A DNA stretch of 43,825 nt, taken from the NCBI RefSeq assembly GCF_027587195.1, contig NZ_JAPDDP010000068.1, forward strand, positions 1 through 43,825. The letters run 5' to 3'. A program made the position numbers and the translations under genes. Source of the stretch: Solirubrobacter phytolaccae. Lineage in GTDB: Bacteria; Actinomycetota; Thermoleophilia; Solirubrobacterales; Solirubrobacteraceae. The notes beneath the pieces were generated by a model. It was given only the letters and a program-made list of their open reading frames with translations. It did no database searches and was not told the DNA's origin. This document shows, one piece after another, positions 1 through 43,455 of this stretch. Numbering within the stretch: position 1 is the first letter of the stretch; every line of letters starts with the position of its first letter.

Positions 1-28
1 CCTCCCGCACACCGGCCGCGTCGTCGAG

Positions 29-844
29 GTGGCCGGCGAGGGCGCGGCGCGCTCCGGGGTGGCGCCGGCTGGCGCGGCCGGGGCGGCGCGCACCGACGTG
101 GCGGCCGTATTGCGGCTCGTCGAGGTCGTCAAGACCTATCCGGGCGGCGTCGAGGCGCTGCGCGGCGTGTCGCTCACGGTCGCGGCGGGGGAGGCGGTCG
201 CCGTGGTCGGGCCGTCCGGCTCGGGCAAGTCGACGCTGCTGCACGTGATGGGCACGCTCGAGCGGCCGACGTCCGGGGACGTGTTCGTCGCGGGACACGA
301 CACGGCGCGGTTGGGTGAACGCGCGCTCGCGGCGCTCCGGGCGCGCGAGATCGGGTTCGTGTTCCAGCAGTTCTTCCTGCTGGATGGGATGACCGCGCTC
401 GACAACGTCGCCACCGGCCTGCTGTACGCGGACGTGGCGCCGGGCGAGCGGCGGGTGCGGGCGCGGGAGGCGTTGACGGCGGTCGGCCTGGAGCACCGGC
501 TCAGCCATCCGCCGTCCAAGCTCTCGGGCGGCGAGCGCCAGCGGGTCGCGATCGCGCGGGCGCTCGTCGGGCGGCCGGCGATCCTGTTCGCCGACGAGCC
601 GACCGGCAACCTGGACAGCCGCACCGGGGCGGGCATCCTCGCGCTGCTGCGGGAGCTGCACGCGGCCGGTTCGACGATCGTGACGATCACGCACGACCCC
701 GCGGTCGCCGACGCGTTCCCGCGCCGGGTGTCAATCACCGATGGGGTCGCATCAGCTCGCGCTGCGCGCTCGGATGCTTCGGTGGGAACTCGCCCAGGGG
801 CTCGTTCCCACGCCGCGGCTGTCGAACGGACGGTGTCGTCATGA
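29..844 (+). CDS. ABC transporter ATP-binding protein (MacB/LolD type)
   Basis: This is the ATPase subunit of a MacB/LolD-type exporter and powers the FtsX-like permease encoded next. The nucleotide-binding domain begins near residue 28. Walker A (GPSGSGKST) lies near residue 62, the Q-loop in the VFQQFF stretch, the signature LSGGERQR near 165, Walker [11 protein letters not shown] near 190 and the H-loop TITHD near 220. The first residues are low-complexity Ala/Gly and the frame stays open to the window edge, so the true start is uncertain; GTG at 98, just before the domain, is an alternative. The last 35 or so residues do not look like the family and cover a small inverted repeat at 782-811. 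The stop overlaps the permease start (ATGA, 841-844), which implies coupled translation. Confidence 0.9.
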
Positions 845-27858: not shown

Positions 27859-27891
27859 GATCCTGTTCGTCTGCATGGGCAACATCTGCCG
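27859..27891 (+). repeat. attL core, 33-bp direct repeat
   Basis: These 33 bases are identical to 42990-43022 and encode the phosphatase segment ILFVCMGNICR. The sequences diverge immediately on both sides. This is the left attachment site of the element. Confidence 0.95.
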
Positions 27892-27991
27892 GGGACCACG
27901 CTGGGCAGGCGCTTTCGGCTCTAGGGCACCGATGCAACTCCGCTGGGGTCCGGCTGGGTCCGGGGGAGTCGAGGGGTTGTTGCCCCGTGAT

Positions 27992-28005
27992 TGTCCCGCG
28001 GGACA
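27992..28005. promoter_or_regulatory. Perfect palindrome TGTCCCGCGGGACA near attL
   Basis: This 14-bp perfect palindrome lies about 100 bp inside attL and 39 bp before the RelA/SpoT-domain gene. Two TGTCCCGT copies occur near attR (42926-42945) and a TGCCCCGT lies 11 bp to its left. It may be an integrase or excisionase arm site, or an operator over a weak promoter (TTAGAC at 28026-28031 as -10). Confidence 0.5.
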
Positions 28006-28044
28006 GCACGTCGCGTAGCGATCTCTTAGACTCGCGACCCTTCC

Positions 28045-28797
28045 GTGCCACCCGAGCTACTGAGAGCCCACGAGATCTCCAATGCGCGGATGGATCGCGC
28101 GGGGAAGGCGATGCGTCAGTGGTTGGCGGACGGGTCTGGCCCGATCGAGGATGAGGTTCTCATCCAGGGCCTGTGGGATCTGTTCGGATGGCGTGAGGGC
28201 TTCCAGCGTCCTCTCTCGAAGGTGGCCAACGGCCTGCGCTCGTTCGTGAAGTCTGAGTGCGGACTTGTGGCAGGCGAGCGTCCGCCGGTGGGACAACGGC
28301 TCAAGCGCGTGCCTCAGATCATCACAAAGCTGGGCCGTTACCCGGGAATGAAGCTCAGTCGTATGCAGGACATCGGCGGGTGTCGAGCGATCTTGTCGAA
28401 CTCCGCTGAAGTCGCTGGCGTGCGCGCTCGCATTGAGCATCGATGGCAAGTCCTAGGAGAGGTCCACGACTACACCGTCAATCCCCAGCCTTCGGGATAT
28501 CGGGCGGTGCACATCAACGTGATGCGCGACAATCATCGGATCGAGATCCAGTTGCGCACCCCTCGGCAGCACGAGTGGGCGACGGTCGTCGAACGTACAG
28601 GCTTGCGGCTGCGGATGCCCCTCAAAGAGGGAGGGGGCGATGCCAACCTACTCCGGTACTTTGAGCTGGCGGCTCGCGGCCTTGCGCTTGAGGAATCAGG
28701 GCAGCAGCCCGATAAAGGGTTCTTAGATGATTTTGCCGAAGCCCGCGAGCGCGTGCGACACTTCTTCAGGTACCCGACCGGCGAGGCCACAGAATGA
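28045..28797 (+). CDS. RelA/SpoT-domain alarmone synthetase-like protein (candidate toxSAS)
   Basis: This stand-alone (p)ppGpp-synthetase-type domain protein has 250 residues and no HD hydrolase domain and no TGS or ACT domain. Synthetase motifs are intact: KRVPQIITKL, RMQDIGGCRA (D109, R114), the G-loop SGYRAVHINV (Y152, H156) and IEIQLRT with catalytic-type E167. An N-terminal helical extension of about 80 residues precedes the domain. Toxic small alarmone synthetases (toxSAS, including CapRel types) in prophages use this architecture to make alarmones or modify tRNA and stop growth on phage infection. It begins with GTG 28045, is the first gene inside attL, and is followed after 19 nt by an 80-residue protein that could be its antitoxin. 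Toxicity is inferred. Confidence 0.85.
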   Translation: MPPELLRAHEISNARMDRAGKAMRQWLADGSGPIEDEVLIQGLWDLFGWREGFQRPLSKVANGLRSFVKSECGLVAGERPPVGQRLKRVPQIITKLGRYPGMKLSRMQDIGGCRAILSNSAEVAGVRARIEHRWQVLGEVHDYTVNPQPSGYRAVHINVMRDNHRIEIQLRTPRQHEWATVVERTGLRLRMPLKEGGGDANLLRYFELAARGLALEESGQQPDKGFLDDFAEARERVRHFFRYPTGEATE

Positions 28798-28816
28798 TGC
28801 GCAAGGTCACCAACCC

Positions 28817-29059
28817 ATGAAGCACTTCTTGCTCACGTTCAACCTGGTGGAGGGCCGGGTGACGGAGCTCAAGACCTTCGCGGACAGCGCTGCTGCTGGC
28901 CGCGCGTACGTGCACGCCGAGCGAAAGAACGCTGGCGATCCCGATCGTGAGATCGTCCTCGTAGGGGCCGACTCGCTCGCGACCCTGAAGATGACTCACG
29001 CGCACTACTTCGGTGACGAGGCCGGAGAGTCGACGTCGCCGTACCTCGCCGGCGTCTAA
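28817..29059 (+). CDS. Small protein downstream of RelA/SpoT gene, candidate antitoxin
   Basis: The protein has 80 residues (MKHFLLTFNLVEGRV...) with alternating beta/alpha character and a conserved-looking LVGADSLATLKMTHAHYF segment. I do not recognise a named family. It sits 19 nt after the alarmone synthetase-like gene and the pair is closed by a strong hairpin at 29091-29119, so the two form a bicistronic unit. The size and position suit an antitoxin or an accessory subunit. That role rests on context only. Confidence 0.7.
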   Translation: MKHFLLTFNLVEGRVTELKTFADSAAAGRAYVHAERKNAGDPDREIVLVGADSLATLKMTHAHYFGDEAGESTSPYLAGV

Positions 29060-29090
29060 GCAGCTAACCCAAGCCCTACGCCCGAGTTCA

Positions 29091-29119
29091 GGGGCCCGTG
29101 ACCCTTGGTCGCGGGCCCC
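29091..29119 (+). terminator. GC-rich hairpin closing the RelA/SpoT operon
   Basis: A 13-bp stem (GGGGCCCGTGACC / GGTCGCGGGCCCC, one T-G wobble) with a CTT loop lies between two convergent units. No long T-run follows. It may work in both directions. Confidence 0.65.
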
Positions 29120-29142
29120 GGTCGTTCGTCGCAGACCCTCCG

Positions 29143-29475
29143 CTAGGCGTGAGCAAGGGCGGAGAATTCCGATGTGGCCTGCGTATCGTTGGCACGTTGC
29201 AGCGCCCATGCGATCAGCGCAAGCCGCTCAACAAGCTCTGGAGAGTCGTCCAACGGCTCGGTACGGTACGGCTCGAGTTCGTCGGCGAGCTGCTCTAGCT
29301 CTCCGCGGATGTTGGCGAACACCTCGGGAACTACGCGCGCGACCGCGCTTGGCAGCTCCGGGTCGCTGGCAAGTTCTCGCAGCATCTCGATCACCTCAGG
29401 TCTCCGGGCGATCACGTCCGGTTCTCCGACCGCCTCAGCGGCCGCGGTGCTGAGAATGCGCGCATGGTGATCCAT
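29143..29475 (-). CDS. Hypothetical protein, alpha-helical
   Basis: The protein has 110 residues, is acidic and is predicted mostly helical (RRPEVIEMLRELASDPELPSAVARVV, FANIRGELEQLADELEP). Family not recognised. ATG 29475 is chosen because it is preceded by AGGA about 10 nt upstream and the upstream extension of the frame is unlike protein. It runs opposite to the main element operon and may be co-transcribed with the gene ending at 29535. No membrane segment or known catalytic motif is seen. Confidence 0.6.
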   Translation of the reverse strand: MDHHARILSTAAAEAVGEPDVIARRPEVIEMLRELASDPELPSAVARVVPEVFANIRGELEQLADELEPYRTEPLDDSPELVERLALIAWALQRANDTQATSEFSALAHA

Positions 29476-29534
29476 GCTCAGGAATCCTAACCCGTAGGCC
29501 AAGACTTTACGCCCCCAGAAAGTCGTGGATCGGT

Positions 29535-30134
29535 CTAAATGCGCGCAAAGAGGGCGCGGATGTCCGTCAGGCGACCGCGGGCGTGGGTAGGCGCGACCGG
29601 AAAGGGCTGGTTCTGAGTTACCTGCCACACGTTGACCAGGGTCGTGCTGCCCGAGCCGTAGCGCGCGTCCGCTGCTTCAAGGATCGGGAGAGCGATCATC
29701 TCGGCAGACGACTGCCTCAGTCGAAGCTCGTCCCACAGGACAATCCTGGCCTCTGAGCCGCCGGCGCCATCATCGACGACGGCGTGCGAGATCGCGCGGA
29801 CACCATGCCCCGGGCCGAATGGCACGGTGAGCTTGACGTCGATTCCGTCGACTCGTGGGGGCATCCCCGCGGCGGCGTCCCAAGCTATGTAGCGCTCAAG
29901 TGCTTTCCGGAGCGCTCTGGCTACGGGCCACGCTGGCCCGCCCGCATACTTGGCGACCTTGCGGTCGAAGTACACCAGCGCGTGCCCCGGCGGATCGCGG
30001 TGAACCTTCCTGAGGGCGCAGTGAGCGACGGACGACAGCCCCATGATCACCGGCTCGACGTTGGGCGCGACGCCCGGCGTGATGTGGGCCCCCCGGGCGG
30101 CCCGCGTGAACTCGGCCTGCGATAGCTCCGGCAT
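29535..30134 (-). CDS. Hypothetical protein, mixed alpha/beta
   Basis: The protein has 199 residues with no recognised family. The sequence has clear protein character: VYFDRKVAKYAGG, VDGIDVKLTVPFGPGHGVRAISHAVVDDG, and a C-terminal TTLVNVWQVTQNQPF segment. No signal peptide or membrane helix is seen. It starts with ATG 30134 on the minus strand and is followed after 59 nt by another unknown gene, so the two may form cargo transcribed against the phage-type genes. Genes in this position of phage satellites often serve phage interference, but nothing in the sequence proves this. Confidence 0.62.
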   Translation of the reverse strand: MPELSQAEFTRAARGAHITPGVAPNVEPVIMGLSSVAHCALRKVHRDPPGHALVYFDRKVAKYAGGPAWPVARALRKALERYIAWDAAAGMPPRVDGIDVKLTVPFGPGHGVRAISHAVVDDGAGGSEARIVLWDELRLRQSSAEMIALPILEAADARYGSGSTTLVNVWQVTQNQPFPVAPTHARGRLTDIRALFARI

Positions 30135-30339
30135 ACGGGATCAAATATCAGACCTCGACTGGGAAGTCATTGCGTACTAGACGATGCGGTGGCGTGCCGA
30201 ACGGTACGCGTAAGTGTGACGCCCGGGTTGACGGCCGCGTGATGCTGGGAAAGCGGCTCGAGTGATGACGCCGGGTCCCCTAGCGAATCCCCTACTTGCA
30301 GGATGCCGGCGGCGAGGTTGGCGGGTGATCATCGCCGGC

Positions 30340-30516
30340 ATGGAACTCGACGATGTTGTGGATGCAGCGGTGGCGGTTGCGAGACGACACCCTGACTGGC
30401 CCTTGGACATCATCGGCGCCGCGGCGGCAGCGCTAGATGAGCTTGGCCCCCGAGAGGATGTGGAGGGCACGATTGAGCGTGTCGCCGCATTTCTTGCGAG
30501 AGGCGACCTCGGTTAG
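30340..30516 (+). CDS. Small hypothetical protein
   Basis: This short acidic helical protein has 58 residues (MELDDVVDAAVAVARRHPDWPL...). GTG 30325 would give five more residues and has a GAGG upstream, so the start is uncertain. No family recognised. It is isolated between minus-strand genes and ends just before a convergent-terminator-like inverted repeat. Coding is supported only by composition and length, so this is a moderate call. Confidence 0.45.
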   Translation: MELDDVVDAAVAVARRHPDWPLDIIGAAAAALDELGPREDVEGTIERVAAFLARGDLG

Positions 30517-30538
30517 CGTTCGCGGCGGGGGGCGCGAT

Positions 30539-30567
30539 TAGCTGCCTAGGTTCCCAAGGTACAGCTA
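30539..30567. terminator. Imperfect inverted repeat between convergent genes
   Basis: TAGCTG and CAGCTA ends enclose a partly complementary core between the stops of the small plus-strand gene and the minus-strand gene ending at 30565. The place fits a two-way terminator; the fold is modest. Confidence 0.35.
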
Positions 30568-31110
30568 GCCCGGCGCGTAGTTAGCCAGGGCAGGCAGGCG
30601 TTCCACCAGCTTCCGGATGTATGCCCATGAGTAGCCGAGATCGTCGGCCACTAGGGTGCTCGCGGGCTCACCGCGGCGCGCCGAACCCAGTCGGTGAGCG
30701 AGCGCCTCGACAGCGAGCGAGACCGTCGCAGGGTTTGGACCGCGCGCTCGCTCCCCGCGCCGGCCATACCGGGGATTCCCGCCGACCGGGGCCATGACGC
30801 CCCAGAGCCCGTTCTCCAGGCGTTGGCGGATGATGGAGGCGAAGAAGTCGATCTCGTCGAATGTGAAGACCTTCAGGGACTCTGCCGTCATCAGCACGCA
30901 TCGTCCGTAGCGAAGCTGGTCATCCGCGAGCCGCAGGTCGGCGAGCGCGAGCAGGGCGTCACGCACGACGACGTGCCGTAGCAGTCCGACGCGAAGGTCG
31001 CTGATCGCGCTCTCGAGCGGCACGTCGATGAGGTTCGGAGTCGGCGGCAGCGGCGGCCCGACGTTAAGTGTCACACCGCGCTGCGCGCTCGTCTCCAGGC
31101 TCCGGCCCAT
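30565..31110 (-). CDS. Hypothetical protein with possible C-terminal HTH
   Basis: This protein of 181 residues has no recognised family. The C-terminal part (ATVSLAVEALAHRL, LVADDLGYSWAYIRKLVERL) resembles a helix-turn-helix, while the N-terminal half is alpha/beta. GTG 31131 is an alternative start. ATG 31110 overlaps the ATG of the divergent XRE gene within one CATG, so the pair shares its start point and the promoters must lie in coding DNA. It may be the partner regulator in a divergent switch with the XRE protein, but this is speculative. Confidence 0.58.
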   Translation of the reverse strand: MGRSLETSAQRGVTLNVGPPLPPTPNLIDVPLESAISDLRVGLLRHVVVRDALLALADLRLADDQLRYGRCVLMTAESLKVFTFDEIDFFASIIRQRLENGLWGVMAPVGGNPRYGRRGERARGPNPATVSLAVEALAHRLGSARRGEPASTLVADDLGYSWAYIRKLVERLPALANYAPG

Positions 31111-31330
31111 GAGCGCTAACGATACGTCCACCAGCGGCGTTCGAGAGCAGCGTCGGGCCGCAGGGCTTTCTCAGCAGCAACTCGCAACTCGTGCTGGGTG
31201 CTCGGTCAGCATGGTTCGACTCGTCGAGTCGGGCTACCGACCTGAAGGCCCGAGCGCCGTTCTTGGACGTATCGAGGCCGCCTTGACGGCCGACGGCTCG
31301 GAGGGCGCCGCGCATGGCCACGATCACTGA
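31109..31330 (+). CDS. XRE-family HTH regulator
   Basis: This is a minimal Cro/CI-type DNA-binding protein of 73 residues. The HTH is clear: VREQRRAAGLSQQQLATRAGCSVSMVRLVESG. No effector or protease domain is attached, so it resembles Cro or a satellite repressor rather than CI. It starts the main plus-strand operon, overlaps the next gene by 17 nt, and is divergent from the unknown gene at 30565-31110. The TTGCGT/ACGCAA palindromes near 39805 are possible binding sites. Confidence 0.85.
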   Translation: MSANDTSTSGVREQRRAAGLSQQQLATRAGCSVSMVRLVESGYRPEGPSAVLGRIEAALTADGSEGAAHGHDH

Positions 31331-31529
31331 TCGGACGGCCAGAGTTCCTCGGCTCGCCCTGTCCGTCAGTGAGGCGTGCGAGGCGATCGGCTGCGGGTGG
31401 GACTTCTTCAACGCGCACGTAGCGCCGGATCTGAGGATCGTCCGACGCGGGAGTAAGAAGCTCATCGCCATAACCGAGCTGCAGCGCTGGCTGGACGAGA
31501 ACGCCGAGCGCGTGCTGGAGGGCGCGTGA
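31314..31529 (+). CDS. Excisionase-like HTH protein (copy 1)
   Basis: This MerR/excisionase-type winged helix has 71 residues. LALSVSEACEAIGCGWDFFNAHVAPDLRIVRRGSKKLIAITELQRWLDEN has the usual layout of a helix-turn-helix, a wing with RIVRRG, and the terminal ELxRWLDE. It is a clear paralogue of the protein encoded beside the integrase (41489-41725), with more than half of the aligned residues the same by eye. This copy overlaps the replication-type gene (GTGA, 31526-31529), so it probably regulates or aids replication rather than excision. Confidence 0.8.
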   Translation: MATITDRTARVPRLALSVSEACEAIGCGWDFFNAHVAPDLRIVRRGSKKLIAITELQRWLDENAERVLEGA

Positions 31530-32653
31530 GTCGCTATCAACGCGTTCCGGTAGCGCTTTGGCGTGAGGCATGGTTTCGCGTGGCCAGTGACGACGCGCGC
31601 GTCGCGGCCTTCTACCTGATGACGTGTACGCACCGAACGTCGGAGGGTTTGTTCTTCCTGCCGGGTGCCTACGCGAGCGCTGATCTCGGGTGGACGCCTG
31701 AACGCTTTGGCGAAGCCTTGTCGGAGCTGTTGCGGCATGGCTTTGTCGAGTACGACCGGACAGCCGACGTCTGCCTGCTTGTCGACGCTCTGGTGTGGCA
31801 AGCGCCAGCCCACGGCAACGCCGTGAAGGCGGCCGTCAAGGCGCTCCGTGAACTGCCGCAAACCCCACTACTGGGGCGGCTGTATCGGCGATGCGTGGAA
31901 ATCGGTGGCGACGGCTGCGAACGCTTCCGGCAAGGCTTGATTGAAGGCTTCGCCGAGTCGTTGGGGGAAGGAATTGCGGAACCACCCTCCCCTTCACTAG
32001 CACTTCCACGAGCACCATCTCCCTCTCCGGGCGCAGCCGATTCTGAGAGAGAGGATGCATCCCGGATCTGCACACTGCTCGCGGATCAGCTCCTACGAGC
32101 GGACATGAAGGCTCGCCCTGCGAAGGCGAGCGCGGAGTGGATCGCGGCGGCGACGGCGCTGCTCGACGAGGACGACCGGACGGTGGAGGAGGTCGAGACG
32201 GCGTTGAGCTTCGTCGAGGGCGACGACTTCTGGCGTCCGCGTATTCAGTCGCCGGCCCTGCTGCGGAAGCACTTCGCGCAGTTGCTGGCTCGTGCGATGG
32301 CGACCCCGGAGGTTGCGGACATCGCAGAGAAGCGAGCTGCGGTCGAGCGAGCGCAAGTCGCGGCTGGGGCGCTGAGTGATCCCGGTGACGTGGAGCGTTC
32401 CGACTGGGCAAGGCTGCACCCAGCACTCGAAGGGGCTTGCCAGGAGGCGCAGGCTGCGGCTCACGTCTCGGAGATGGCGCTCGTCGGCGTGGACGCTGAC
32501 GGCGTTCTTGTGGTTGACGCTCCGGACGCGGCTTGGCGGTGGGCCTCTCGGCGGTTCACCGGTCCGATGCTGGAGTGGGCGAAGAGCGTGGGGGTGCGGG
32601 CTCGTCTTGCGTCGAAGGACGAGCACGATGGCCGTCGGGGGGCAGCGGCGTGA
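31526..32653 (+). CDS. Probable replication initiator / replisome organiser
   Basis: The protein has 375 residues. The N-terminal 110 residues resemble a replisome-organiser winged helix (FYLMTCTHRTSEGLFFLPGAYASADLGWTPERFGEALSELLRHGFVEYD), as in phage replication proteins with DnaD-like partners. A proline/serine linker (about 152-173) follows. The C-terminal segment ALVGVDADGVLVVDAPDAAWRWASRRF resembles the DnaA N-terminal domain found at the end of some phage and plasmid initiators. It is translationally coupled on both sides (GTGA overlaps). Autonomous replication of the excised element is therefore plausible. The family call is by layout, not by search. Confidence 0.65.
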   Translation: MSRYQRVPVALWREAWFRVASDDARVAAFYLMTCTHRTSEGLFFLPGAYASADLGWTPERFGEALSELLRHGFVEYDRTADVCLLVDALVWQAPAHGNAVKAAVKALRELPQTPLLGRLYRRCVEIGGDGCERFRQGLIEGFAESLGEGIAEPPSPSLALPRAPSPSPGAADSEREDASRICTLLADQLLRADMKARPAKASAEWIAAATALLDEDDRTVEEVETALSFVEGDDFWRPRIQSPALLRKHFAQLLARAMATPEVADIAEKRAAVERAQVAAGALSDPGDVERSDWARLHPALEGACQEAQAAAHVSEMALVGVDADGVLVVDAPDAAWRWASRRFTGPMLEWAKSVGVRARLASKDEHDGRRGAAA

Positions 32654-32907
32654 CCGTGATCGAAGGTGCGCACCGCGTGGCACGCCGTGTGAACACGTAC
32701 GGTCGGCTGGACCTCGAGCATGAAGTGAGCGAGCTCGTGCGCTTCGGGATGCACGAGGAGGATGCTCGACGCGCCGTAGACCTGTGCGCGGTGCGCGGGA
32801 CGGTTCTCAAGCGCACCGACAACAGCTGCGTGTTCTTGCTGCGGCCGCCTGACTGGCGCGCCGAGCTCGCCGCCATCGACGAGATCGAAACCGGAGAGCC
32901 GGCATGA
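32650..32907 (+). CDS. Hypothetical protein in replication cluster
   Basis: This basic-to-acidic small protein has 85 residues (VTVIEGAHRVARRVNTYGRLDLEHEV...). GTG 32650 overlaps the stop of the replication-type gene, and its own stop overlaps the 27-residue microprotein start (ATGA, 32904-32907). No family recognised. The segment VRFGMHEEDARRAVDLCAV has helical character. Its tight coupling suggests a replication accessory role, which is inference only. Confidence 0.65.
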   Translation: MTVIEGAHRVARRVNTYGRLDLEHEVSELVRFGMHEEDARRAVDLCAVRGTVLKRTDNSCVFLLRPPDWRAELAAIDEIETGEPA

Positions 32908-32987
32908 CCCTTTTCTCCGCTCGGCTCTTCGACGCCGCGAGGCTGCGCGGCAGAGCCAATGAGAGTTCTTCTTGGGAGGCGACATGA
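32904..32987 (+). CDS. 27-residue microprotein or translational coupler
   Basis: An open frame of 28 codons including stop fits exactly between two genes: its ATG overlaps the previous stop (ATGA 32904-32907) and its stop overlaps the next start (ATGA 32984-32987). The peptide begins MTLFSARLFDAARLRGR and is amphipathic and basic. A GGGAGG before 32984 shows that the next gene also has its own ribosome-binding site. It could be a real peptide or a means to carry ribosomes along the operon. Confidence 0.45.
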   Translation: MTLFSARLFDAARLRGRANESSSWEAT

Positions 32988-33886
32988 TCACCGTTACGGC
33001 CACTTACGGCCCCACTGGCGACTTCGGCACGAGCCAGACGATCACACAGCTCGCCGTGACGGCGGCGGCCGGTGACGTTCTCGTTGCCGCTATCTCGCGC
33101 AGTTCCTACACCGCCGGAGCGTCCTTTTCGGATGCAGGCGGCAATTCGTGGACGACGGTGCTCGACATCGACCACTCCGCCGCTTCGACCGGCTTCGCCG
33201 TCGGCATCTGCCTAGTGACGAGCGGGTTCACCGGCAACGTCGTCGGCACCTTCTTTGACAGTGCCTTCAGCAACCGGCAGATCGTCGTGCACCGGCTCAA
33301 CGGACTTGCTACGTCCGCTGTCGTCGACGCGGCGCCAGCTCCGACCCAGCACTCCGGCGGCGTGAACGTCAACGCGGCCTCGAACTCGACGGGCACGCTC
33401 GGTCAAGCCGACGAGATTGCAATCGGGATCGTGGCCGGCGCGGCCACGGCGACATACGTGCCAGGTGCTGGCTGGACCGAGCTGTCCGACTTCGCGCAAG
33501 GCTCCGTGACGCTGCAGACGGCGTACCAGATCGTGAGCGCAACAACCGCGTTGCAGTACACGGCAACCGCGTCCGCGGCTGACGCGTGGACGTGCGGGGT
33601 CCTCACGCTGAACGGGCGCGGATCCGGGCGTAGTCTTGCCGCTTCGAGCCACGCTGATCGGTCCGTCTTACGCCGCCCAGCGAGCGTCCCGAGCGATGAG
33701 ACTGAGCCGACGAAGTTTTGTCGTCCATGCGGTGCCACCAAGCCCGTCGACGACTTCGGGATCGACCGGAGCCGCCGAGACGGCCGGATGAATCGATGCA
33801 AGGTGTGCGATCGCGCCCGGGGTCGGGCCTACTACTCCCGTGTGACCCAGGGGACGCAGGTCACGGCGACGGCGGAAGACGCATGA
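32984..33886 (+). CDS. Beta-rich phage-type protein with C-terminal zinc ribbon
   Basis: This protein of 300 residues starts at ATG 32984 with GGGAGG upstream. Residues 1 to about 220 are Thr/Ser/Ala/Gly-rich with beta-strand periodicity, like phage fibre or decoration proteins (FSDAGGNSWTTV, DEIAIGIVAGAATATYVPGAGWT). After an Arg/Ser linker the C terminus carries a Cys4 module (C246, C249, C272, C275) in FCRPCGATKPVDDFGIDRSRRDGR, a zinc-ribbon type seen in small phage proteins and HNH-like endonucleases. No internal start fits the zinc part, so this looks like a true fusion. Next to the prohead protease, a structural role is likely. Confidence 0.68.
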   Translation: MITVTATYGPTGDFGTSQTITQLAVTAAAGDVLVAAISRSSYTAGASFSDAGGNSWTTVLDIDHSAASTGFAVGICLVTSGFTGNVVGTFFDSAFSNRQIVVHRLNGLATSAVVDAAPAPTQHSGGVNVNAASNSTGTLGQADEIAIGIVAGAATATYVPGAGWTELSDFAQGSVTLQTAYQIVSATTALQYTATASAADAWTCGVLTLNGRGSGRSLAASSHADRSVLRRPASVPSDETEPTKFCRPCGATKPVDDFGIDRSRRDGRMNRCKVCDRARGRAYYSRVTQGTQVTATAEDA

Positions 33887-34176
33887 GCCGAGACCCACGT
33901 GAGAGCGGAGGACTCATGGTCCAGGACTTAGGGGGCGTGCCCTTCAAAAGTCTGACGGAACTCAGAAGGCGCGGCACTGTCACGGCATTTCCCTCTCCGG
34001 TCCATTTCAAGGCGATTTGCAGGCCTTTCACGGTGATCGGGCCCACAGTGGCCCTGGGCGCCGTTCGAACCGCCTCAGAGGCCCGACGGTCGGTCGTCGC
34101 GACAGGCCAGGCCACCCCCCTTGCGACCACATCAGGCCCGCCTGGCGGCGGGACGACGAACGGAGTTCGACAATGA
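33883..34176 (+). CDS. Hypothetical protein upstream of prohead protease
   Basis: The protein has 97 residues and ATGA overlaps at both ends (33883-33886 and 34173-34176), which is the main evidence that it is translated. Family not recognised. The middle contains KSLTELRRRGTVTAFPSPVHFKAICRPFTVIGPTVALGAV and the end is Gly/Thr-rich. In complete phages the portal or terminase usually lies here, yet this protein is far too small for either. Confidence 0.5.
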   Translation: MSRDPRESGGLMVQDLGGVPFKSLTELRRRGTVTAFPSPVHFKAICRPFTVIGPTVALGAVRTASEARRSVVATGQATPLATTSGPPGGGTTNGVRQ

Positions 34177-34877
34177 GCGGAACCACGGCATGGCGGCGCA
34201 GCAAGGCGCACGAACTCGGATCAACGGTCGAGCACCGCGAGTTCGCGGCCGGCGACCTGGAGATCCGGGAGACCGGCGACGGCACATGGCTCTTGACCGG
34301 ATACGCGTCGATCGTCGAGCGCTGGTACACCGTCGGCTGGTACCGCGAGCGCATCGCTCGCGGTGCATTCCGCGACACCCTCAGCGCGGACCCGGACGTC
34401 CAGCTGCTCATCAACCACAGCGGCATGCCGCTCGCCAGAACACGCTCCAACACGCTCACTCTCGAAGAGCGCCAGCGAGGCCTGTGGATCGAGGCGCGCC
34501 TCGATCCCGAAGACCCGGACGCACGCTCGCTGAGGGGCAAGATGAAGCGCGGCGACATCGACCAGATGAGCTTCGCGTTCCGTGTTCCGTCCGGCGGTGA
34601 CGCCTGGAACGACGACTACAGCGAACGCGTCGTGAAAACGGTCGACCTGCACCGCGGTGACGTGAGCGTGGTCAATCAGGGCGCCAATCCGGCGGCCACC
34701 GCAGAGATGCGCGCGCAGAACGCACGTCGCGCTGGGGAGATCCCGGACTTCACGACCCGCGCACGGCAGGAACTCGACCTGCTCCGACTGGGCGGCCGCA
34801 CGCGTCCGGCGGCGCCGTCGAGCGACCCGCTCGTGCGAGCCCGGCTCGAGATCGAGGCCCTGAGGGGGGCACGATGA
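34173..34877 (+). CDS. HK97-family prohead protease
   Basis: This protein of 234 residues has the caudovirus prohead-protease fold. It shows FAAGDLEIRETGDGTWLLTGYASIVERW, then GAFRDTL, the catalytic-type His in LLINHSGMPLART and the nucleophile-type Ser in IDQMSFAFRV, followed by the VSVVNQGANPAA stretch that ends the domain. In phages it trims capsid and scaffold during head maturation. No capsid or portal gene is recognisable beside it, so it may act on proteins of a helper phage, or on a capsid too diverged to see. ATGA overlaps join it to both neighbours. Confidence 0.88.
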   Translation: MSGTTAWRRSKAHELGSTVEHREFAAGDLEIRETGDGTWLLTGYASIVERWYTVGWYRERIARGAFRDTLSADPDVQLLINHSGMPLARTRSNTLTLEERQRGLWIEARLDPEDPDARSLRGKMKRGDIDQMSFAFRVPSGGDAWNDDYSERVVKTVDLHRGDVSVVNQGANPAATAEMRAQNARRAGEIPDFTTRARQELDLLRLGGRTRPAAPSSDPLVRARLEIEALRGAR

Positions 34878-35191
34878 GCGAGCCGTTCGACCTTCGCGAG
34901 CGCGTCGCGCAGTTCCCAACCGACGATCCCGCTCGCAGCGCGTTTCGCGAACAAGCGAAGCGGATGGTCGACGACGAGACGCTCCCGATCGTGGCCCGTG
35001 CGCAAGCCGGCCAGATGCTCGCGGTCGTCGTCTTGATCGACGACGAGGGCATGTCGGTCGACGCGGCACTCGCGTACTTCGAGGACCTGCTGGCGACGGA
35101 CCGGCAGTTCAACGCGATCCACGACCTACCCGAATACGACCCCGACCCGCCCGCGGACGCGTCCGCCACCAACACCGGAAGGAACACATGA
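34874..35191 (+). CDS. Hypothetical phage-type protein
   Basis: This acidic protein of 105 residues (MSEPFDLRERVAQFPTDDPARSAFREQ...) is helical for the first 80 residues and ends in a Pro/Asp/Ala-rich tail. Family not recognised. ATGA overlaps on both sides place it in the structural operon directly after the protease. Size and charge would suit a scaffold-like or head-completion protein, but there is no direct evidence. Confidence 0.65.
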   Translation: MSEPFDLRERVAQFPTDDPARSAFREQAKRMVDDETLPIVARAQAGQMLAVVVLIDDEGMSVDAALAYFEDLLATDRQFNAIHDLPEYDPDPPADASATNTGRNT

Positions 35192-35568
35192 GCGTTCAAG
35201 ACGCCGAGTCCGAGCGGGTGCTCGATCTGGTGCGGCAGGAGATCGCGCGCGATCGCGCCGAGCGACTCCAGCCGCGGCCCGTACCCACCTGGCGGGAACT
35301 CGCCGAGCAGCAGGACCTCAAGCGTGCGGCGCGCCAGCAGGCGACCGAACAGGCCGAGCAGGCTCGACTCCAGCGAGTCAAGCAACTCGCGCCCAAAGCG
35401 AAGCGGATGCGACGCGAGCTGGAGGAGGCCGAGCGCGCCTACGCGGACGCTGACGCGGCGTTCGAACAGATCAGAGACGCCCGTCAGCAGATCGACGACA
35501 CCCGACGGCAACTCAGCAACAAGCTGGCTCACCTCGAACAAGGCACGGACCTCGATGTCAGTGCTTGA
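35188..35568 (+). CDS. Coiled-coil protein, possible scaffold
   Basis: This protein of 126 residues is almost entirely charged helix with heptad-like spacing (about 40-120: AEQQDLKRAARQQATEQAEQ, RMRRELEEAERAYADADAAF). Such coiled coils occur in phage scaffold and tail-chaperone proteins. It follows the prohead protease by one gene, where scaffold genes often lie. The 3' end overlaps the next gene by 14 nt. Confidence 0.65.
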   Translation: MSVQDAESERVLDLVRQEIARDRAERLQPRPVPTWRELAEQQDLKRAARQQATEQAEQARLQRVKQLAPKAKRMRRELEEAERAYADADAAFEQIRDARQQIDDTRRQLSNKLAHLEQGTDLDVSA

Positions 35569-35956
35569 CCACCTGCGACCGATCGGGGACCAGGCGCCCT
35601 CCGAGATCGCTGACACGATCTACCACGCCGGTCCGAAGATGCGTCACGACACCAAAGTCGCGGCCTCCAGCTTGCTCTACGTCATCGCCCAGTGGGCGGC
35701 CACGGATCTGCAGCAGTTCGCCGAGGGCATCCTGCGCGAGGTCAACGAAGGCGCGCCGGCCGTGTTGGACGAGCTGTTCGCGACGATGGGCCCTGCCCTC
35801 GCCGAGATGGAAGCGCTCGTCAACGCGTACCGGCTCGCGAACCCGGTCGACGACACGGCTCAGCAGATGAGCCGGGCGATCGGCGCGGTCCGGCAGGCGT
35901 TCGACGGTGCCGTCGCGGCCCGGCGTTCCTTCTCCGCCGACCCCGGGACCGTGTGA
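35555..35956 (+). CDS. Hypothetical phage-type helical protein
   Basis: This helical protein of 133 residues has no recognised family. Segments such as KVAASSLLYVIAQWAATDLQQFAEGILREV and MGPALAEMEALVNAYRLANP suggest a bundled structure. ATG 35555 overlaps the upstream gene, and the stop overlaps the next start (TGATG, 35954-35958). It lies between the coiled-coil gene and the ten-residue-repeat gene in the structural operon. Confidence 0.62.
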   Translation: MSVLDHLRPIGDQAPSEIADTIYHAGPKMRHDTKVAASSLLYVIAQWAATDLQQFAEGILREVNEGAPAVLDELFATMGPALAEMEALVNAYRLANPVDDTAQQMSRAIGAVRQAFDGAVAARRSFSADPGTV

Positions 35957-36171
35957 TGGGCGCCGACAAGCCAACGCGAACGTGCGCGGACGTGCTCGCT
36001 GAGCACGCCACGTGTGCGGACGTCGCAGGGAGCGTGGAGTCGTGCGAACAGCTTGCCGGCGGGCCGGTCGAGGCCTATGCCGATGTGCTTGCGCGGCACG
36101 GCAATTACGGCGACCTCGCCGCGACGCACAGTTCCTACGCCGACCTTCTCGAAGAGGAAGGAACCGGGTGA
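35956..36171 (+). CDS. Ten-residue tandem-repeat protein
   Basis: The protein has 71 residues, of which 9-69 form six tandem units of about ten: TCADVLAEHA, TCADVAGSVE, SCEQLAGGPVE, AYADVLARHG, NYGDLAATHS and SYADLLEEEG. The consensus is small residue, Tyr or Cys, any, Asp, Leu/Val, then Ala two places on, and often His. The repeats differ at DNA level, so they are old or under selection. The product lies just before the gpI-like tail gene and overlaps both neighbours. A short solenoid, a rod or a metal-binding peptide is conceivable. No known family comes to mind. Confidence 0.72.
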   Translation: MGADKPTRTCADVLAEHATCADVAGSVESCEQLAGGPVEAYADVLARHGNYGDLAATHSSYADLLEEEGTG

Positions 36172-36809
36172 CCGCGGGCGCCCGGTTCTACGCGCGGCTA
36201 GCGCCGCTGGAAGGTGACGACGGGGACGGCACCCTCGAGAACCTCAGCGTCGCGTTCATGCACCCGGTCGAGATCGCGGAGATCTCCCGCGACCAAGGCG
36301 AACTGATCGCGTGGGAAGCGCTCTGGGACCCCGACACGTGCCCCGAAGACCTCCTCGATTGGCTCGCCATCGCGAACGGCATCGTGCTCCCACCAAGCGC
36401 GATCACCCCAGCGGACAAGCGCTACCGGATCAAGCAAGCCGCCGGCCGCTACCGAGGCACGCCACGCGCGCTCGTCGAGGAGGTCCAGCTCGAGCTCACG
36501 GGCACGAAGACCGTGATCATGGCGTTCCAGTCCCCGGACCGGTGGTCCTACGCCGTCGGCACGATCGACGCCGAGACTTCTGACACGGCCGCGATTGACG
36601 CCGCGATCGAACGGCAGAACCCCGCGTTCACGCTCTGGTCCCGCGCGCTCACCTCCGAATGGTCCTACCTCGTGCTCGGCCCGACGCTGATCGCTACGCG
36701 CGTCGGTGACGAGTACACGATCGGCACTCCGACCTACCCGGACTACGCGTCCATCGTCGCCGCGTTCAGCGACTACCAGCACCTCGAAGACAACGACCCT
36801 GACCTCTAG
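36168..36809 (+). CDS. Phage tail protein, P2 gpI-like
   Basis: This protein of 213 residues resembles the P2 gpI/baseplate tail-protein family. Support comes from CPEDLLDWLAIANGIVLP, the spacing to KRYRIKQAAGRYRGTPRALVEEVQLEL (the usual region leading into an R/K-GT motif), and the position just before a fibre gene. The C-terminal half is beta-rich. GTG 36168 overlaps the upstream stop (GTGA). In contractile-tail phages gpI links baseplate and fibres. No other baseplate protein is recognisable here, so this element may use or alter a helper's tail. Confidence 0.75.
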   Translation: MTAGARFYARLAPLEGDDGDGTLENLSVAFMHPVEIAEISRDQGELIAWEALWDPDTCPEDLLDWLAIANGIVLPPSAITPADKRYRIKQAAGRYRGTPRALVEEVQLELTGTKTVIMAFQSPDRWSYAVGTIDAETSDTAAIDAAIERQNPAFTLWSRALTSEWSYLVLGPTLIATRVGDEYTIGTPTYPDYASIVAAFSDYQHLEDNDPDL

Positions 36810-36817
36810 GAGGCCGA

Positions 36818-37804
36818 ATGCCAGCCACCACACCACTCGGGTTGCGCATCCCGCCCATGACAGGTGTCACGCCGAACCCCCCACGCGACATCGGCTACCT
36901 CGCCGAGGATGCGCAGCGAGAGATCGCCAGCACCGCGGCGCCACTTCAAGAAGGCGTCATCGACGCCGGCAGCTTCGCGGTCACGCAGGCTTCTGGCGGA
37001 GCCGGCATGATCCTCGACGTCGCGAGCAACGTTGGCGGCGGCGCGTTCGTCGACGACGACGGACTCAGTCCCGCGCGGATCGCCCGCTACTACGTCCCGC
37101 CGACCGCCGCGAAGACCACCGTCACGGTCGCGACTGCGCATGCCACGCTCCCGCGCGTTGACGCCGTCGTTGTGAGCATGGCCGGCGTGGTGAGCATCAT
37201 CACCGGCACGGCAACTTCGGGCGCGACGATCGACAACGCGCGTGACGGCTCCCACGGCGGCGCGGCGATTCCTTCGGACGCGCTGCACCTCGCAGACGTG
37301 CACGTGCCCGCGATCGATACGACCATCGCGAACGCGCAGATTCGAGACCGGCGCAAGTGGGCGCGCGGCGCCCACTTCAGCGGGGTCCGGACTGCCGGCA
37401 GCGTCACCCCGTCGGGGAGCGTGTTCGGGCTTCTCGACTCCGCGCTGACCCCACGGATCGAGTGCTCCGGCGCCCCGGTGCGGATGCGGGTGTCCGGGAC
37501 GTGGCGCGTGCTCTCGGGGAGCTTCCTCTACGTCTCCGCGGTGGTCGATGGTGTCGGTGTGAACGGCATGCCCAGCGTTGGCGACGCGACGGTCGCCGGG
37601 CAGACCGAGCAAACGACGGGCAGCACCATCCTCAACTTCGAGATGACGTTCACGCCCTCGGCAGGGAGCCATGTGCTCGGCTTCGCCGTCGCCCAAGCCT
37701 CGGGCTCGACCTCGTTCATCTACGGGAGCAGCGACAAGCCGCTCTTCGTCTCGATAGAAGAAGACCTCCGGCCCAGCGCGCAGAACAATGCTACGAGCGC
37801 GTAG
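36818..37804 (+). CDS. Tail fibre / receptor-binding-like protein
   Basis: This protein of 328 residues follows the gpI-like gene after 8 nt with a strong AGGAGG site. The N-terminal 130 residues (MPATTPLGLRIPPMTGVTPNPPRDI) look like a baseplate-attachment region. The remainder is Ser/Thr/Gly/Ala-rich and beta-stranded, as in receptor-binding tips (IECSGAPVRMRVSGTWRVLSGSF, TILNFEMTFTPSAGSHVLGFAV). The binding target is unknown. The 3' end overlaps the convergent metallopeptidase gene by 14 nt. Confidence 0.72.
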   Translation: MPATTPLGLRIPPMTGVTPNPPRDIGYLAEDAQREIASTAAPLQEGVIDAGSFAVTQASGGAGMILDVASNVGGGAFVDDDGLSPARIARYYVPPTAAKTTVTVATAHATLPRVDAVVVSMAGVVSIITGTATSGATIDNARDGSHGGAAIPSDALHLADVHVPAIDTTIANAQIRDRRKWARGAHFSGVRTAGSVTPSGSVFGLLDSALTPRIECSGAPVRMRVSGTWRVLSGSFLYVSAVVDGVGVNGMPSVGDATVAGQTEQTTGSTILNFEMTFTPSAGSHVLGFAVAQASGSTSFIYGSSDKPLFVSIEEDLRPSAQNNATSA

Positions 37805-38321: not shown

Positions 38322-38419
38322 GAGCGAACCATAAACACTCTACTTTGGAGAAATCTTGATCATCCACGTAGAACTAAACCTGTGGCACGGTACGTGCTGC
38401 ACGACGACGAGGTGACCTA

Positions 38420-41488: not shown

Positions 41489-41725
41489 ATGGCGTCTAGC
41501 GGCCGTGCAGTCGGCGGAGGGCGCCTGGCGCTCAACGTCGAGGAGGCCTGTGCAGCTCTCGGGGTCAGCTGGGACTTCTGGTCTGAGCACATCGCTCCCG
41601 AGATCAAGATCGTCCGCCGGGGCCGGCGCAGGATCGTCTCGATCCGCGAACTCGAGCGCTGGCTCGACGAGAACTCAAGCGCGATGGCAGACGCAATCCC
41701 ATCTAGCCGTAGGAGAATGAACTGA
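41489..41725 (+). CDS. Excisionase-like HTH protein (copy 2)
   Basis: This protein of 78 residues is paralogous to the one at 31314-31529: LALNVEEACAALGVSWDFWSEHIAPEIKIVRRGRRRIVSIRELERWLDEN. It is a MerR/excisionase-type winged helix. The stop overlaps the integrase start (TGATG, 41723-41727), the usual xis-int coupling, so this copy is the better candidate for the recombination directionality factor. The ATG at 41489 is chosen because the frame upstream is low-complexity. Confidence 0.8.
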   Translation: MASSGRAVGGGRLALNVEEACAALGVSWDFWSEHIAPEIKIVRRGRRRIVSIRELERWLDENSSAMADAIPSSRRRMN

Positions 41726-42897
41726 TGGCCGACGAAGGGATCGAAGTCCGCCACGAGAAGGCGTGCCGCTCGCACGACGGCGGACGGTGCAACTGCAAGC
41801 CGACGTACCGCGCGAGCGTGTGGAGCAACCGAGATCGCCGACGACTTCGCAAGTCGTTCCCGACACGCGCCGCGGCGAAGTCCTGGCGACAGGACGCGCT
41901 CGTCGCCCTCCGGCAGGGCGAGCTCCGCGCGGTCAAGACCGTCACGGTCAAGGAGGCAGCCGCGGCGTGGCTAGAGGGCGCGCGCGAGGGATCGATCCGC
42001 AACCGGTCCGGAAGTCCATACAAGCCCAGCGCGATCCGCGCGTACGAGAAGGAGCTCCGGCTGCGGGTCTTGCCCGCGTTCGGGTCGCGGCGCCTGTCTG
42101 ATCTCGCCCGCAACGACGTCCAGGACTTTGTCGACCGCCTCGGGCGGGACGGGCTGAGCGCGAGCAGCGTGCAGTGCTCCCTGCTGCCGCTGCGGGCGAT
42201 CTACCGGCGCGCGATCCAGCGAGGCGAAGTCGCGGTCAACCCGTGCACCGGCCTGGACCTGCCCGCCGTGCGGTCTCGCCGCGACCGGATCGCCGACCCG
42301 ACTGAAGCGGCTGCCCTGCTCGCCGCACTCCCGGCCACCGAGCGCGCGACCTGGGCGACGGCGATGTACGCGGGCCTGCGCCGAGGAGAGTTGCGTGCCT
42401 TGAGGTGGGAGAACGTGAACCTCGCGGCTGGCGTTCTGCGCGTGGAGAGCGGCTGGGATGATGTCGAGGGCGAGATCGCACCCAAGAGCCGCGAGGGCCG
42501 GCGGACGGTCCCTGTGGCGGGGGTCTTGCGCGACGTGCTCGTCGAGCATCGGATGCGCGAGGGCCGCGACCGCGGGTTCGTGTTCGGCCGGACTGCGAGC
42601 GACCCGTTCGTGTCCGACACGCTGAGCAAGCGCGCGGCGAAGGCATGGAAGGCGGCCGGGCTCGCGCCGATCACGCTGCACGAGTGCCGTCACACGTTCG
42701 CGTCGATGATGATCGCCGCAGGCGTGAACGCGAAAGCGCTCAGCCGGTACATGGGGCACCACAGCATCGTCATCACGCTCGACCTGTACGGGCACCTGAT
42801 GCCCGGCAATGAGGACGAAGCGGCGGGGCTGCTCGACGCCTACCTTGCGCGTGCCGACACGGCCGCTCGTGTCGCGCAGCTCGGCGGCGCGGCCTAA
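41725..42897 (+). CDS. int: Tyrosine integrase
   Basis: This site-specific recombinase has 390 residues. The N-terminal arm-binding region starts with a Cys/His cluster (CRSHDGGRCNC, about residues 14-24), followed by a SAM-like core-binding domain (about 72-160) and the catalytic domain with Arg in AGLRRGELRALRW, Lys in the KSREGRRTVPV strand, HECRHTF (HxxR), GHHS and the nucleophile Tyr in LDLYGHLMPG. It lies about 90 bp from attR and is coupled to the xis-like gene. It should catalyse integration at the P-loop region of the phosphatase gene. Confidence 0.95.
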   Translation: MADEGIEVRHEKACRSHDGGRCNCKPTYRASVWSNRDRRRLRKSFPTRAAAKSWRQDALVALRQGELRAVKTVTVKEAAAAWLEGAREGSIRNRSGSPYKPSAIRAYEKELRLRVLPAFGSRRLSDLARNDVQDFVDRLGRDGLSASSVQCSLLPLRAIYRRAIQRGEVAVNPCTGLDLPAVRSRRDRIADPTEAAALLAALPATERATWATAMYAGLRRGELRALRWENVNLAAGVLRVESGWDDVEGEIAPKSREGRRTVPVAGVLRDVLVEHRMREGRDRGFVFGRTASDPFVSDTLSKRAAKAWKAAGLAPITLHECRHTFASMMIAAGVNAKALSRYMGHHSIVITLDLYGHLMPGNEDEAAGLLDAYLARADTAARVAQLGGAA

Positions 42898-42975: not shown

Positions 42976-43455
42976 GTGAAGCCAACCACGATCCTGTTCG
43001 TCTGCATGGGCAACATCTGCCGCTCGCCCACGGCCGAGGGCGTGATGCGCCACCTCGTTGGCGAGGCCGGGCTAGAGGACGAGATCGTCATCGACAGCGC
43101 CGGCACCGGCGACTGGCACGCCGGCGATCCGCCCGACCGGCGCGCGACCCAGGCCGCTCGGGCCCGTGGCGTCGTGCTGGAGGGCGCGGCGCGGCAGATC
43201 ACGGTCGACGACTTCGAGGACTTCGACTACCTGCTGGCGATGGATCGCGACAACCTCGAGGGCATCCGGTCGATCGCGCCCGACGAGGAGGCGGCCGGGA
43301 AGGCGCGGCTGCTGCGCGAGTTCGACCCCGCTTCGGCGGGCGCGCCGGACCTCGACGTGCCCGACCCGTACTACGGCGGCCCGGACGGCTTCGAGACCGT
43401 GCTGGATCAGGTCGAGGCCGCGTGCCGCGGCCTGCTGGATGAGATCCGCGGTTGA
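42976..43455 (+). CDS. Low-molecular-weight protein tyrosine phosphatase, rebuilt at attR
   Basis: This enzyme of 159 residues dephosphorylates tyrosine phosphate. The P-loop VCMGNICRSPTAEG holds the nucleophile Cys and Arg of CX5R, and DVPDPYYGG carries the general-acid Asp. The GTG 42976 start and the next four codons come from the element; from codon 6 on the sequence is host. The original gene began MPEAR before ILFVC and the new one begins MKPTT, so the length is the same. A longer start at GTG 42937 is possible. AGGA lies 10 nt upstream. After integration the gene is no longer coupled to psuK and depends on element-side transcription. Confidence 0.92.
   Translation: MKPTTILFVCMGNICRSPTAEGVMRHLVGEAGLEDEIVIDSAGTGDWHAGDPPDRRATQAARARGVVLEGAARQITVDDFEDFDYLLAMDRDNLEGIRSIAPDEEAAGKARLLREFDPASAGAPDLDVPDPYYGGPDGFETVLDQVEAACRGLLDEIRG
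42990..43022 (+). repeat. attR core, 33-bp direct repeat
   Basis: Identical to 27859-27891. It sits at codons 5-16 of the rebuilt phosphatase gene and marks the right boundary of the element. Confidence 0.95.

What the first reader, a model, noticed from the sequence alone, without database searches (positions are those of the whole stretch)
28045..29119. Candidate toxic alarmone-synthetase / antitoxin pair as element cargo
A stand-alone RelA/SpoT synthetase-domain protein with intact motifs and no hydrolase domain is followed after 19 nt by an 80-residue protein and then a strong hairpin. It is the first unit inside attL, a usual cargo position. The bicistronic layout matches toxSAS systems that block growth or infection, but the small partner is not a family I recognise and could be a new antitoxin type.
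Basis: partly seen in the sequence, partly recalled or inferred. Interest (0 to 1): 0.72.

Follow-up and report, generated by a model that had tools for sequence, protein, structure and literature searches.

The report
Two-gene CapRel-type alarmone-synthetase toxin–antitoxin pair
A small mobile element in an actinobacterial genome carries a toxin gene and its matching antitoxin gene of an already described anti-phage family (CapRel), so the pair is ordinary in kind, though its antitoxin shows a one-residue difference that separates two-gene from one-gene versions of the family.

Summary
In detail: a 250-residue stand-alone RelA/SpoT synthetase (28045-28797), a 19-nt gap, an 80-residue protein (28817-29059) and a strong hairpin (29091-29119) lie just inside attL of a 15.1-kb integrated element. 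'toxSAS toxin-antitoxin pair' is supported; 'possibly a new antitoxin type' is not. The small protein is homologous to the antitoxin domain of fused CapRel and to Phrann gp30 and recurs behind the synthetase in its relatives. The nearest solved structure by sequence and fold is CapRel(SJ46); published work already says CapRel is usually unfused in Actinobacteria. I file the pair as unfused CapRel:ATcapRel: probably a tRNA-end pyrophosphotransferase held off by an antitoxin plugging its ATP site, probably used against phages. Toxicity, target and trigger were not tested. One lead: the antitoxin's 'YXXY' neutralising motif reads HXXY here. His occupies that position in 49 of 54 distinct two-gene loci sampled (the other five are broken genes), Tyr/Phe in 97 of 97 fused ones. 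On the tree this is one switch, coinciding with one fusion/fission step: a testable lead, not an independent correlation.

The parts
27859..27891 (+). attL core: 33-nt repeat inside the 5' end of a low-molecular-weight phosphatase gene
   Evidence: perfect direct repeat D10; truncated phosphatase ORF 27845-28018 matches PF01451 at E 0.0013, below its cut-off
28045..28797 (+). toxSAS toxin, CapRel type (250 aa)
   Evidence: PF04607; PDC-S33 N-terminal part E 2e-47; best PDB sequence hits CapRel 9erv/7ztb 1.6e-12; AF2 model pLDDT 92.5, best fold 7ztb E 3.9e-13, TMq 0.76
28817..29059 (+). antitoxin, ATcapRel/gp30 type (80 aa)
   Evidence: PDC-S33 C-terminal part E 6.3e-7; phrog_22117 E 2.6e-7; AF2 model pLDDT 85.8, last 11 residues under 50; best VIA-align row ATfaRel2 8pu2 Z 6.0, rmsd 1.9 A, 57 residues
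28994..29011 (+). codons of THAHYF (residues 60-65), the HXXY counterpart of the YXXY neutralising motif
   Evidence: alignments; structural end-points 1..66 on 0..56 of ATfaRel2 place H61/Y64 on Y51/Y54 if the last stretch is ungapped (inference)
29091..29119 (+). strong hairpin behind the antitoxin gene, no T-run
   Evidence: fold of 29060-29130, z -4.1; not called as terminator
41725..42897 (+). tyrosine integrase of the element (390 aa), beside attR
   Evidence: PF00589 E 9.1e-22; phrog_1 integrase 9e-65
42976..43455 (+). phosphatase ORF restored at attR, with start codon and first codons supplied by the element
   Evidence: PF01451 E 4.8e-43; sequence; start codon chosen by me
42990..43022 (+). 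attR core, second copy of the 33-nt repeat

Best explanation
The two genes are an unfused CapRel toxin-antitoxin module. Shown here: gene 1 is a synthetase-only RelA/SpoT-fold protein with the substrate-site residues kept; gene 2 is homologous to the antitoxins of this family; both occur side by side in their relatives in the same order. Inferred from tested relatives: gene 1 alone stops growth by adding pyrophosphate from ATP to the 3'-CCA end of tRNAs; gene 2 binds it and pushes its HXXY motif between R85 and R114 into the ATP pocket; a product of an invading phage pulls the antitoxin away and the cell stops translating before the phage can multiply. The module serves the element and its host as phage defence. 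The trigger, the exact target and any role of the hairpin are unknown.
For: Family placement: (PDC-S33 = CapRel). Homology to named relatives: M. terramassiliense AB308 unfused pair (L039), toxin 38% identity, E 1e-44, antitoxin 41%, E 7e-18; Phrann gp30 E 3e-12; CapRel(SJ46) C-terminal domain E 1.1e-5. Adjacency: of 160 loci fetched with a synthetase profile (best 80 of 446 and best 80 of 98), 159 have the antitoxin domain fused (113) or separately downstream (46); in 299 related genomes 30 of 35 antitoxin places lie beside the synthetase. Structure. Mechanism in relatives: PMC9712102 and PMC11782079 (passages).
Against: No growth, binding or enzymatic test exists for this pair. Foldseek gives the antitoxin model only E 0.45 to CapRel, and VIA-align's Z 6.0 is below the 8 that its own note treats as safe. 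The motif is HXXY, not the YXXY whose Tyr were tested in CapRel(SJ46) and ATfaRel2; a pZFD that lost YXXY (AT2faRel C-terminal domain) does not neutralise (PMC11782079, passage). The window genes are only 38-41% identical to the AB308 pair. Five of 35 antitoxin places in related genomes lack an intact toxin beside them.
Confidence: 0.86

Rival explanations
1. The synthetase is a housekeeping-type small alarmone synthetase making (p)ppGpp, and the small protein is a regulator, not an antitoxin.
For: Same fold class: small alarmone synthetase structures match the model (E 2.4e-9 and worse), and NCBIfam lists YjbM and RelA/SpoT models far below their cut-offs.
Against: CapRel outranks them by nearly four orders of magnitude by fold and by seven by sequence; the partner belongs to the CapRel/gp30 antitoxin family.
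Confidence: 0.05
2. It is a toxin-antitoxin pair but the toxin makes (pp)pApp (FaRel/Tas1 mode) and drains ATP.
For: Some toxSAS enzymes do this (PMC11782079, passages).
Against: Those are reported to be held by Tis1-like antitoxins at the acceptor site; pZFD antitoxins go with tRNA-targeting toxins (PMC11782079, passages). The partner here is related to the pZFD antitoxins. The enzyme was not tested.
Confidence: 0.06
3. The pair is a worn-out remnant and no longer acts.
For: The 15-kb element is small for a complete phage (inference); broken CapRel genes occur in the sample (L004, L052, L062, L065, L067, also L029).
Against: Both frames are open and full length, site residues are kept.
Confidence: 0.08
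4. The small protein is a new antitoxin type unrelated to known ones.
For: No Pfam family covers it and its only PDB sequence hit up to E 10 is an unrelated one at 0.46.
Against: PDC-S33 C-terminal match, profile match to Phrann gp30, alignment with the unfused antitoxin of M. terramassiliense AB308.
Confidence: 0.01

Closest known systems
Unfused CapRel:ATcapRel of Mycobacterium terramassiliense AB308 (locus L039)
   Same: Two genes, toxin first, separate antitoxin with THANYF; toxin 38% and antitoxin 41% identical. PMC9712102 (figure-legend passages) names the M. terramassiliense pair and says the CapRel pair is usually unfused in Actinobacteria.
   Different: Host and about 60% of residues; 19-nt gap in the window, whereas with my choice of start codon the L039 genes overlap by 4 nt, stop codon counted.
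Fused CapRel(SJ46), PDB 7ztb/9erv; PADLOC PDC-S33; phrog_4773
   Same: Same toxin domain and same antitoxin domain in the same order; ATP-site residues conserved.
   Different: One polypeptide; motif AYPNYF against THAHYF.
PhRel gp29 / ATphRel gp30 of Mycobacterium phage Phrann (L005)
   Same: Two genes; gp30 is a homologue (E 3e-12) with THSRYF; the Phrann system inhibits superinfection (PMC9712102, passage).
   Different: gp29 is a more distant toxin, 35% over 43% of the query, in a separate long-branched group in the tree.
FaRel2:ATfaRel2 (8pu1-8pu4)
   Same: Two-gene, tRNA-targeting (PMC11782079, passages); ATfaRel2 is the best structural match of the antitoxin model (Z 6.0).
   Different: Toxin only weakly similar by sequence (E 0.059); motif YXXY; PMC11782079 (passage) says the topologies suggest circular permutation of ATfaRel2 relative to the CapRel domain.

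Membership tests
Unfused CapRel:ATcapRel (toxSAS) | Synthetase domain without hydrolase domain | tested here: met
   Only PF04607 reported in 250 aa
Unfused CapRel:ATcapRel (toxSAS) | Toxin closest to CapRel by sequence and fold | tested here: met
   PDC-S33 E 2e-47, CapRel(SJ46) itself PDC-S33 E 7e-87; PDB best 1.6e-12; fold E 3.9e-13
[quoted passage not shown]
   E 6.3e-7 to PDC-S33 265-330; hhalign to SJ46 C-terminus E 1.1e-5; to the AB308 antitoxin E 7e-18
Unfused CapRel:ATcapRel (toxSAS) | ATP-site residues R79/R116 and Y155 (SJ46 numbers) | tested here: met
   R85, R114, Y152 in the window; R116 and Y155 kept in 142 of 142 aligned toxins, R79 in 141 of 142 with one gap (45 two-gene rows, 97 fused; four PhRel-like rows, the four broken fused copies and toxins of 150 aa or less left out)
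Unfused CapRel:ATcapRel (toxSAS) | Plug motif at the YXXY place, in the THxxYF form of the AB308 and Phrann antitoxins | tested here: met
   THAHYF in the window, THANYF in L039, THSRYF in gp30; His here in 52 of 57 two-gene loci
Unfused CapRel:ATcapRel (toxSAS) | pseudo-zinc-finger fold of the antitoxin | tested here: inconclusive
   Best rows ATfaRel2 Z 6.0/5.7, CapRel Z 4.3; Foldseek best is CapRel but E 0.45
Unfused CapRel:ATcapRel (toxSAS) | Toxin inhibits growth alone and is rescued by the partner | not testable with these tools
   needs expression
Unfused CapRel:ATcapRel (toxSAS) | tRNA CCA-end pyrophosphorylation | not testable with these tools
   inferred from relatives (PMC9712102, PMC11782079, passages)
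Fused CapRel (SJ46 type) | Toxin and antitoxin in one polypeptide | tested here: not met
   Two ORFs in different frames, 19 nt apart
Fused CapRel (SJ46 type) | YXXY neutralising motif | tested here: not met
   HAHY in the window
PhRel | Toxin groups with Phrann gp29 | tested here: not met
   Window lies in a starred set of 8 with L008, L023, L024, L037 and others; gp29 groups with L014 and L015, L013 beside them (the tool warns of long branches there)
FaRel/Tas1 type | Tis1-like antitoxin domain | tested here: inconclusive
   No Tis1-like row among those listed; absence there excludes nothing

The most novel reading that the evidence does not exclude
In the CapRel/PhRel antitoxins the first residue of the neutralising motif is a state marker: His when the antitoxin is a separate protein (THxxYF), Tyr or Phe when it is tethered to the toxin (mostly A[YF]PNYF). 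The exchange would set how tightly or how reversibly the ATP pocket is plugged, and so how the system is triggered: free antitoxins must hold on in trans and be removed, tethered ones must let go and return.
Probability: 0.3. Interest if true: 0.5.

Novelty: new member of a known kind. Interest (0 to 1): 0.27.

Why it matters
It settles a flagged 'possible new antitoxin' as a member of a studied anti-phage family, and links the PADLOC candidate PDC-S33 and phrog_4773/22117 to CapRel. The HXXY/YXXY split is the part a specialist could use: in the passages I read YXXY is treated as the conserved neutralising motif, yet the two-gene CapRel and PhRel antitoxins in my sample carry His at its first place (52 of 57 loci, the rest broken genes). 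Two of these are from systems reported as working toxin-antitoxin pairs (Phrann gp30 and, by my recollection of the strain name, the AB308 pair), so HXXY is presumably functional. A one-residue exchange between the two forms would show whether tethering and plug chemistry were tuned together.

Tried and rejected
A new antitoxin family was considered and rejected. A Foldseek search of the antitoxin model gave nothing below E 0.45; the VIA-align second look was needed. tblastn of the antitoxin in phage records and a single-sequence scan of viral contigs found nothing, presumably because the protein is short and diverged. PhRel and FaRel/Tas1 membership were considered (see Membership tests). The 14-nt palindrome at 27992-28005 upstream of the toxin was considered as an operator; copies of its half (TGTCCCG) also lie before attR, so integrase arm sites are as likely; left open. 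I looked for related elements with other cargo at the same place: eight stretches around integrase relatives were fetched, several cut by contig ends; none showed the phosphatase motif and of 25 window genes only the integrase and the small HTH gene matched, so no cargo-swap evidence was obtained. I considered a significance test of the motif/fusion association; the tree needs one motif change only, so a value would mislead and none is given. L004, L052, L062, L065 and L067 were classed as broken after they appeared as exceptions; the same test was not applied to the His-bearing rows, and at least L029 among them also has its toxin in two pieces.

Papers: PMC9712102, PMC11782079, PMC11578894, PMC8832971 and PMC7591505 were seen as passages found by search terms, not whole; figures are not held. 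Other papers were seen as search listings only. Jimmy et al. 2020 (the toxSAS founding paper) is not held; I know it through PMC7591505 and recall. That AB308 is the strain behind 'M. tuberculosis CapRel' in that literature is recalled. A search for 'PDC-S33' found no paper.

Full report
What is there. The window is a whole contig of a 7.74-Mb genome. Two same-family genomes (G043, G019) hold loci on contigs whose lengths equal those of named Solirubrobacteraceae contigs returned for the same family of queries, so the host is most likely of that family (inference). A perfect 33-nt repeat at 27859-27891 and 42990-43022 bounds a 15,131-bp element. The repeat is part of a low-molecular-weight phosphatase gene; the ORF restored at attR (42976-43455, PF01451 E 4.8e-43) begins with a start codon supplied by the element. 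The integrase lies beside attR. The toxin/antitoxin pair is the first unit inside attL. Between them are, among others, a small HTH gene (31314-31529; excisionase-like is my label), a DnaD-like replication gene, a prohead protease (PF04586 E 4.7e-31) and a tail protein (PF09684 E 3.6e-8): the element looks like a reduced prophage or satellite (inference).

The two genes. Gene 1 (28045-28797) has one Pfam family, RelA_SpoT; gene 2 (28817-29059) has none. PADLOC's PDC-S33 covers both: its residues 6-220 match gene 1 (E 2e-47) and its residues 265-330 match gene 2 (E 6.3e-7). PHROGs gives the same picture with phrog_4773 (1.5e-40 and 0.0015) and adds a stand-alone family, phrog_22117, for gene 2 (2.6e-7). 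CapRel(SJ46) itself hits PDC-S33 at 7e-87 over residues 11-370, and gene 2's relative in M. terramassiliense AB308 hits its C-terminal part (1.8e-7); Phrann gp30 shows no PADLOC match up to 0.1. So PDC-S33 is CapRel, and gene 2 is its antitoxin domain as a separate protein.

Comparison with known systems. Best PDB sequence hits of gene 1 are the two CapRel entries (1.6e-12); FaRel2 is weak (0.059). Against the AB308 pair (L039) the toxin is 38% and the antitoxin 41% identical. A profile of 42 two-gene antitoxins (A3) matches Phrann gp30 at E 3e-12 and the CapRel(SJ46) C-terminus at 1.1e-5. The toxin model (pLDDT 92.5) has CapRel as best PDB fold, E 3.9e-13, TM 0.76 by query length. The antitoxin model (pLDDT 85.8, last 11 residues unsure) gives only E 0.45 to CapRel by Foldseek, but the VIA-align second look puts ATfaRel2 first (8pu2 Z 6.0, 8pu3 Z 5.7, rmsd 1.9 A over 57 residues) with CapRel at Z 4.3; Z of this size is not proof by itself.

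Adjacency. A scan of genome contigs gave 446 confirmed relatives, best 80 kept; a scan of viral contigs gave 98, best 80 kept. Of these 160, 113 carry the antitoxin domain fused and 46 have it in a separate frame within 400 nt downstream (three of the 46 are broken fused genes, L062, L065, L067); one (L181) has none and ends 373 nt from the contig end. These are best hits, not a random sample. In 299 related genomes the antitoxin profile has 35 places in 28 genomes, the window included (the first look scores a capped number of candidates, so these are lower bounds). Comparing the printed coordinates by eye with the toxin profile's places, 30 of 35 have a toxin place directly upstream on the same strand or in the same frame. 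Of the other five, G066:C17 and G176:C37 hold stops, G019:C15 has a toxin remnant beside it, G138:C57 has only a toxin fragment about 1.5 kb away, and G039:C32 has none. From the toxin side, 29 of 31 listed places of at least 70 bits, long Rel proteins of over 700 aa left out, have the antitoxin; the exceptions are G159:C343 (contig edge) and G250:C38.

What is published. PMC9712102 (passages) states that most CapRel systems are fused except in Actinobacteria, where the pair is usually unfused; [quoted passage not shown] that a YXXY motif blocks the adenine site between R79 and R116; and that a phage capsid protein releases it. PMC11782079 (passages) shows the pZFD antitoxin ATfaRel2 blocking the ATP donor site and predicts the same for split CapRel and PhRel. 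PMC7591505 (passages) reports five tested toxSAS systems, CapRel and PhRel among them. The window pair is a further member of this kind.

The HXXY point. I read the motif columns on an HMM alignment. Of 181 loci then held, 179 had a toxin score above 40 (L017 and L018 dropped): 119 fused, 57 separate, 3 without antitoxin (L006, L016, L181). Fused: 109 Tyr, 10 Phe. Separate: 52 His, 1 Gln, 4 Tyr. After merging identical toxin domains (153): fused 88 Tyr and 9 Phe; separate 49 His, 1 Gln, 4 Tyr; 2 without. The four Tyr cases (L004, L062, L065, L067) are fused genes interrupted by a stop or a frame change; L062, where a stop falls between two otherwise open domains, is the nearest thing to a counterexample. 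The Gln case (L052) has its toxin in two pieces. I classed them so after seeing them, and did not screen the His rows in the same way (L029 among them also has a toxin in two pieces). No fused system has His. On a toxin-only tree of 116 representatives (75% identity clusters, toxins under 150 aa left out, L039 not a row of its own; quick method, SH-aLRT only) all 69 fused rows, with the broken copies L004 and L067, form one clade at 100, architecture needs three changes (two of them those broken copies) and the His/aromatic state one. So motif and architecture changed together once in this sample; this differs from the published remark that fusion or fission appears to have happened several times, but my sample came from one conserved pattern and is not a full survey. 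I found no mention of HXXY in the passages of PMC9712102, PMC11782079 and PMC11578894 returned for the terms, and no further paper for it in the searches; the published alignments are figures and could not be seen, and the residue should be visible there.

How it most likely works. Resting cell: toxin and antitoxin form a complex and the antitoxin's H61-A-H-Y64 turn fills the ATP pocket beside R85 and R114 (inferred from the CapRel and ATfaRel2 work and from residue conservation). On infection a phage product removes the antitoxin (inferred; the trigger is unknown), the enzyme pyrophosphorylates tRNA ends and translation stops. The hairpin may end the transcript or shield its 3' end (inferred; no T-run).

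Verdict. Interest 0.27.

Noticed in passing
27859-43022: A 15.1-kb element sits inside a low-molecular-weight phosphatase gene and supplies a new start codon and first codons at attR so that the gene is restored.
   Followed up: partly
31314-42897: The element holds a prohead protease, a tail P2_I protein, DnaD-like and endonuclease VII-like genes in about 15 kb; it looks like a reduced prophage or a satellite with capsid-maturation genes.
   Followed up: partly
27992-28005 and 42926-42944: TGTCCCG heptamers lie near both ends of the element (a perfect palindrome TGTCCCGCGGGACA inside attL, two direct copies before attR); candidate integrase arm sites.
   Followed up: no
L248 (unnamed related genome): An integrase about 59% identical to the window's lies in a 15.1-kb stretch bounded by a 69-nt repeat that looks like part of a tRNA gene (my reading, not scanned); only the integrase and the small HTH gene are shared with the window's element.
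   Followed up: partly
toxin position T180 (SJ46 T193), codon 28582-28584: This residue is Thr in 97 of 97 fused toxins but variable in two-gene toxins, one of the two strongest toxin-side differences between the forms; the window happens to have Thr.
   Followed up: no
PADLOC PDLC04999 (PDC-S33): The 'phage defence candidate' PDC-S33 is CapRel: CapRel(SJ46) matches it nearly end to end at 7e-87.
   Followed up: yes
L006 2360-3203 (Nitrososphaera provirus Pro-Nvie1): An archaeal provirus has a RelA/SpoT-like protein followed by a small gene; my antitoxin profile does not match that small protein.
   Followed up: no
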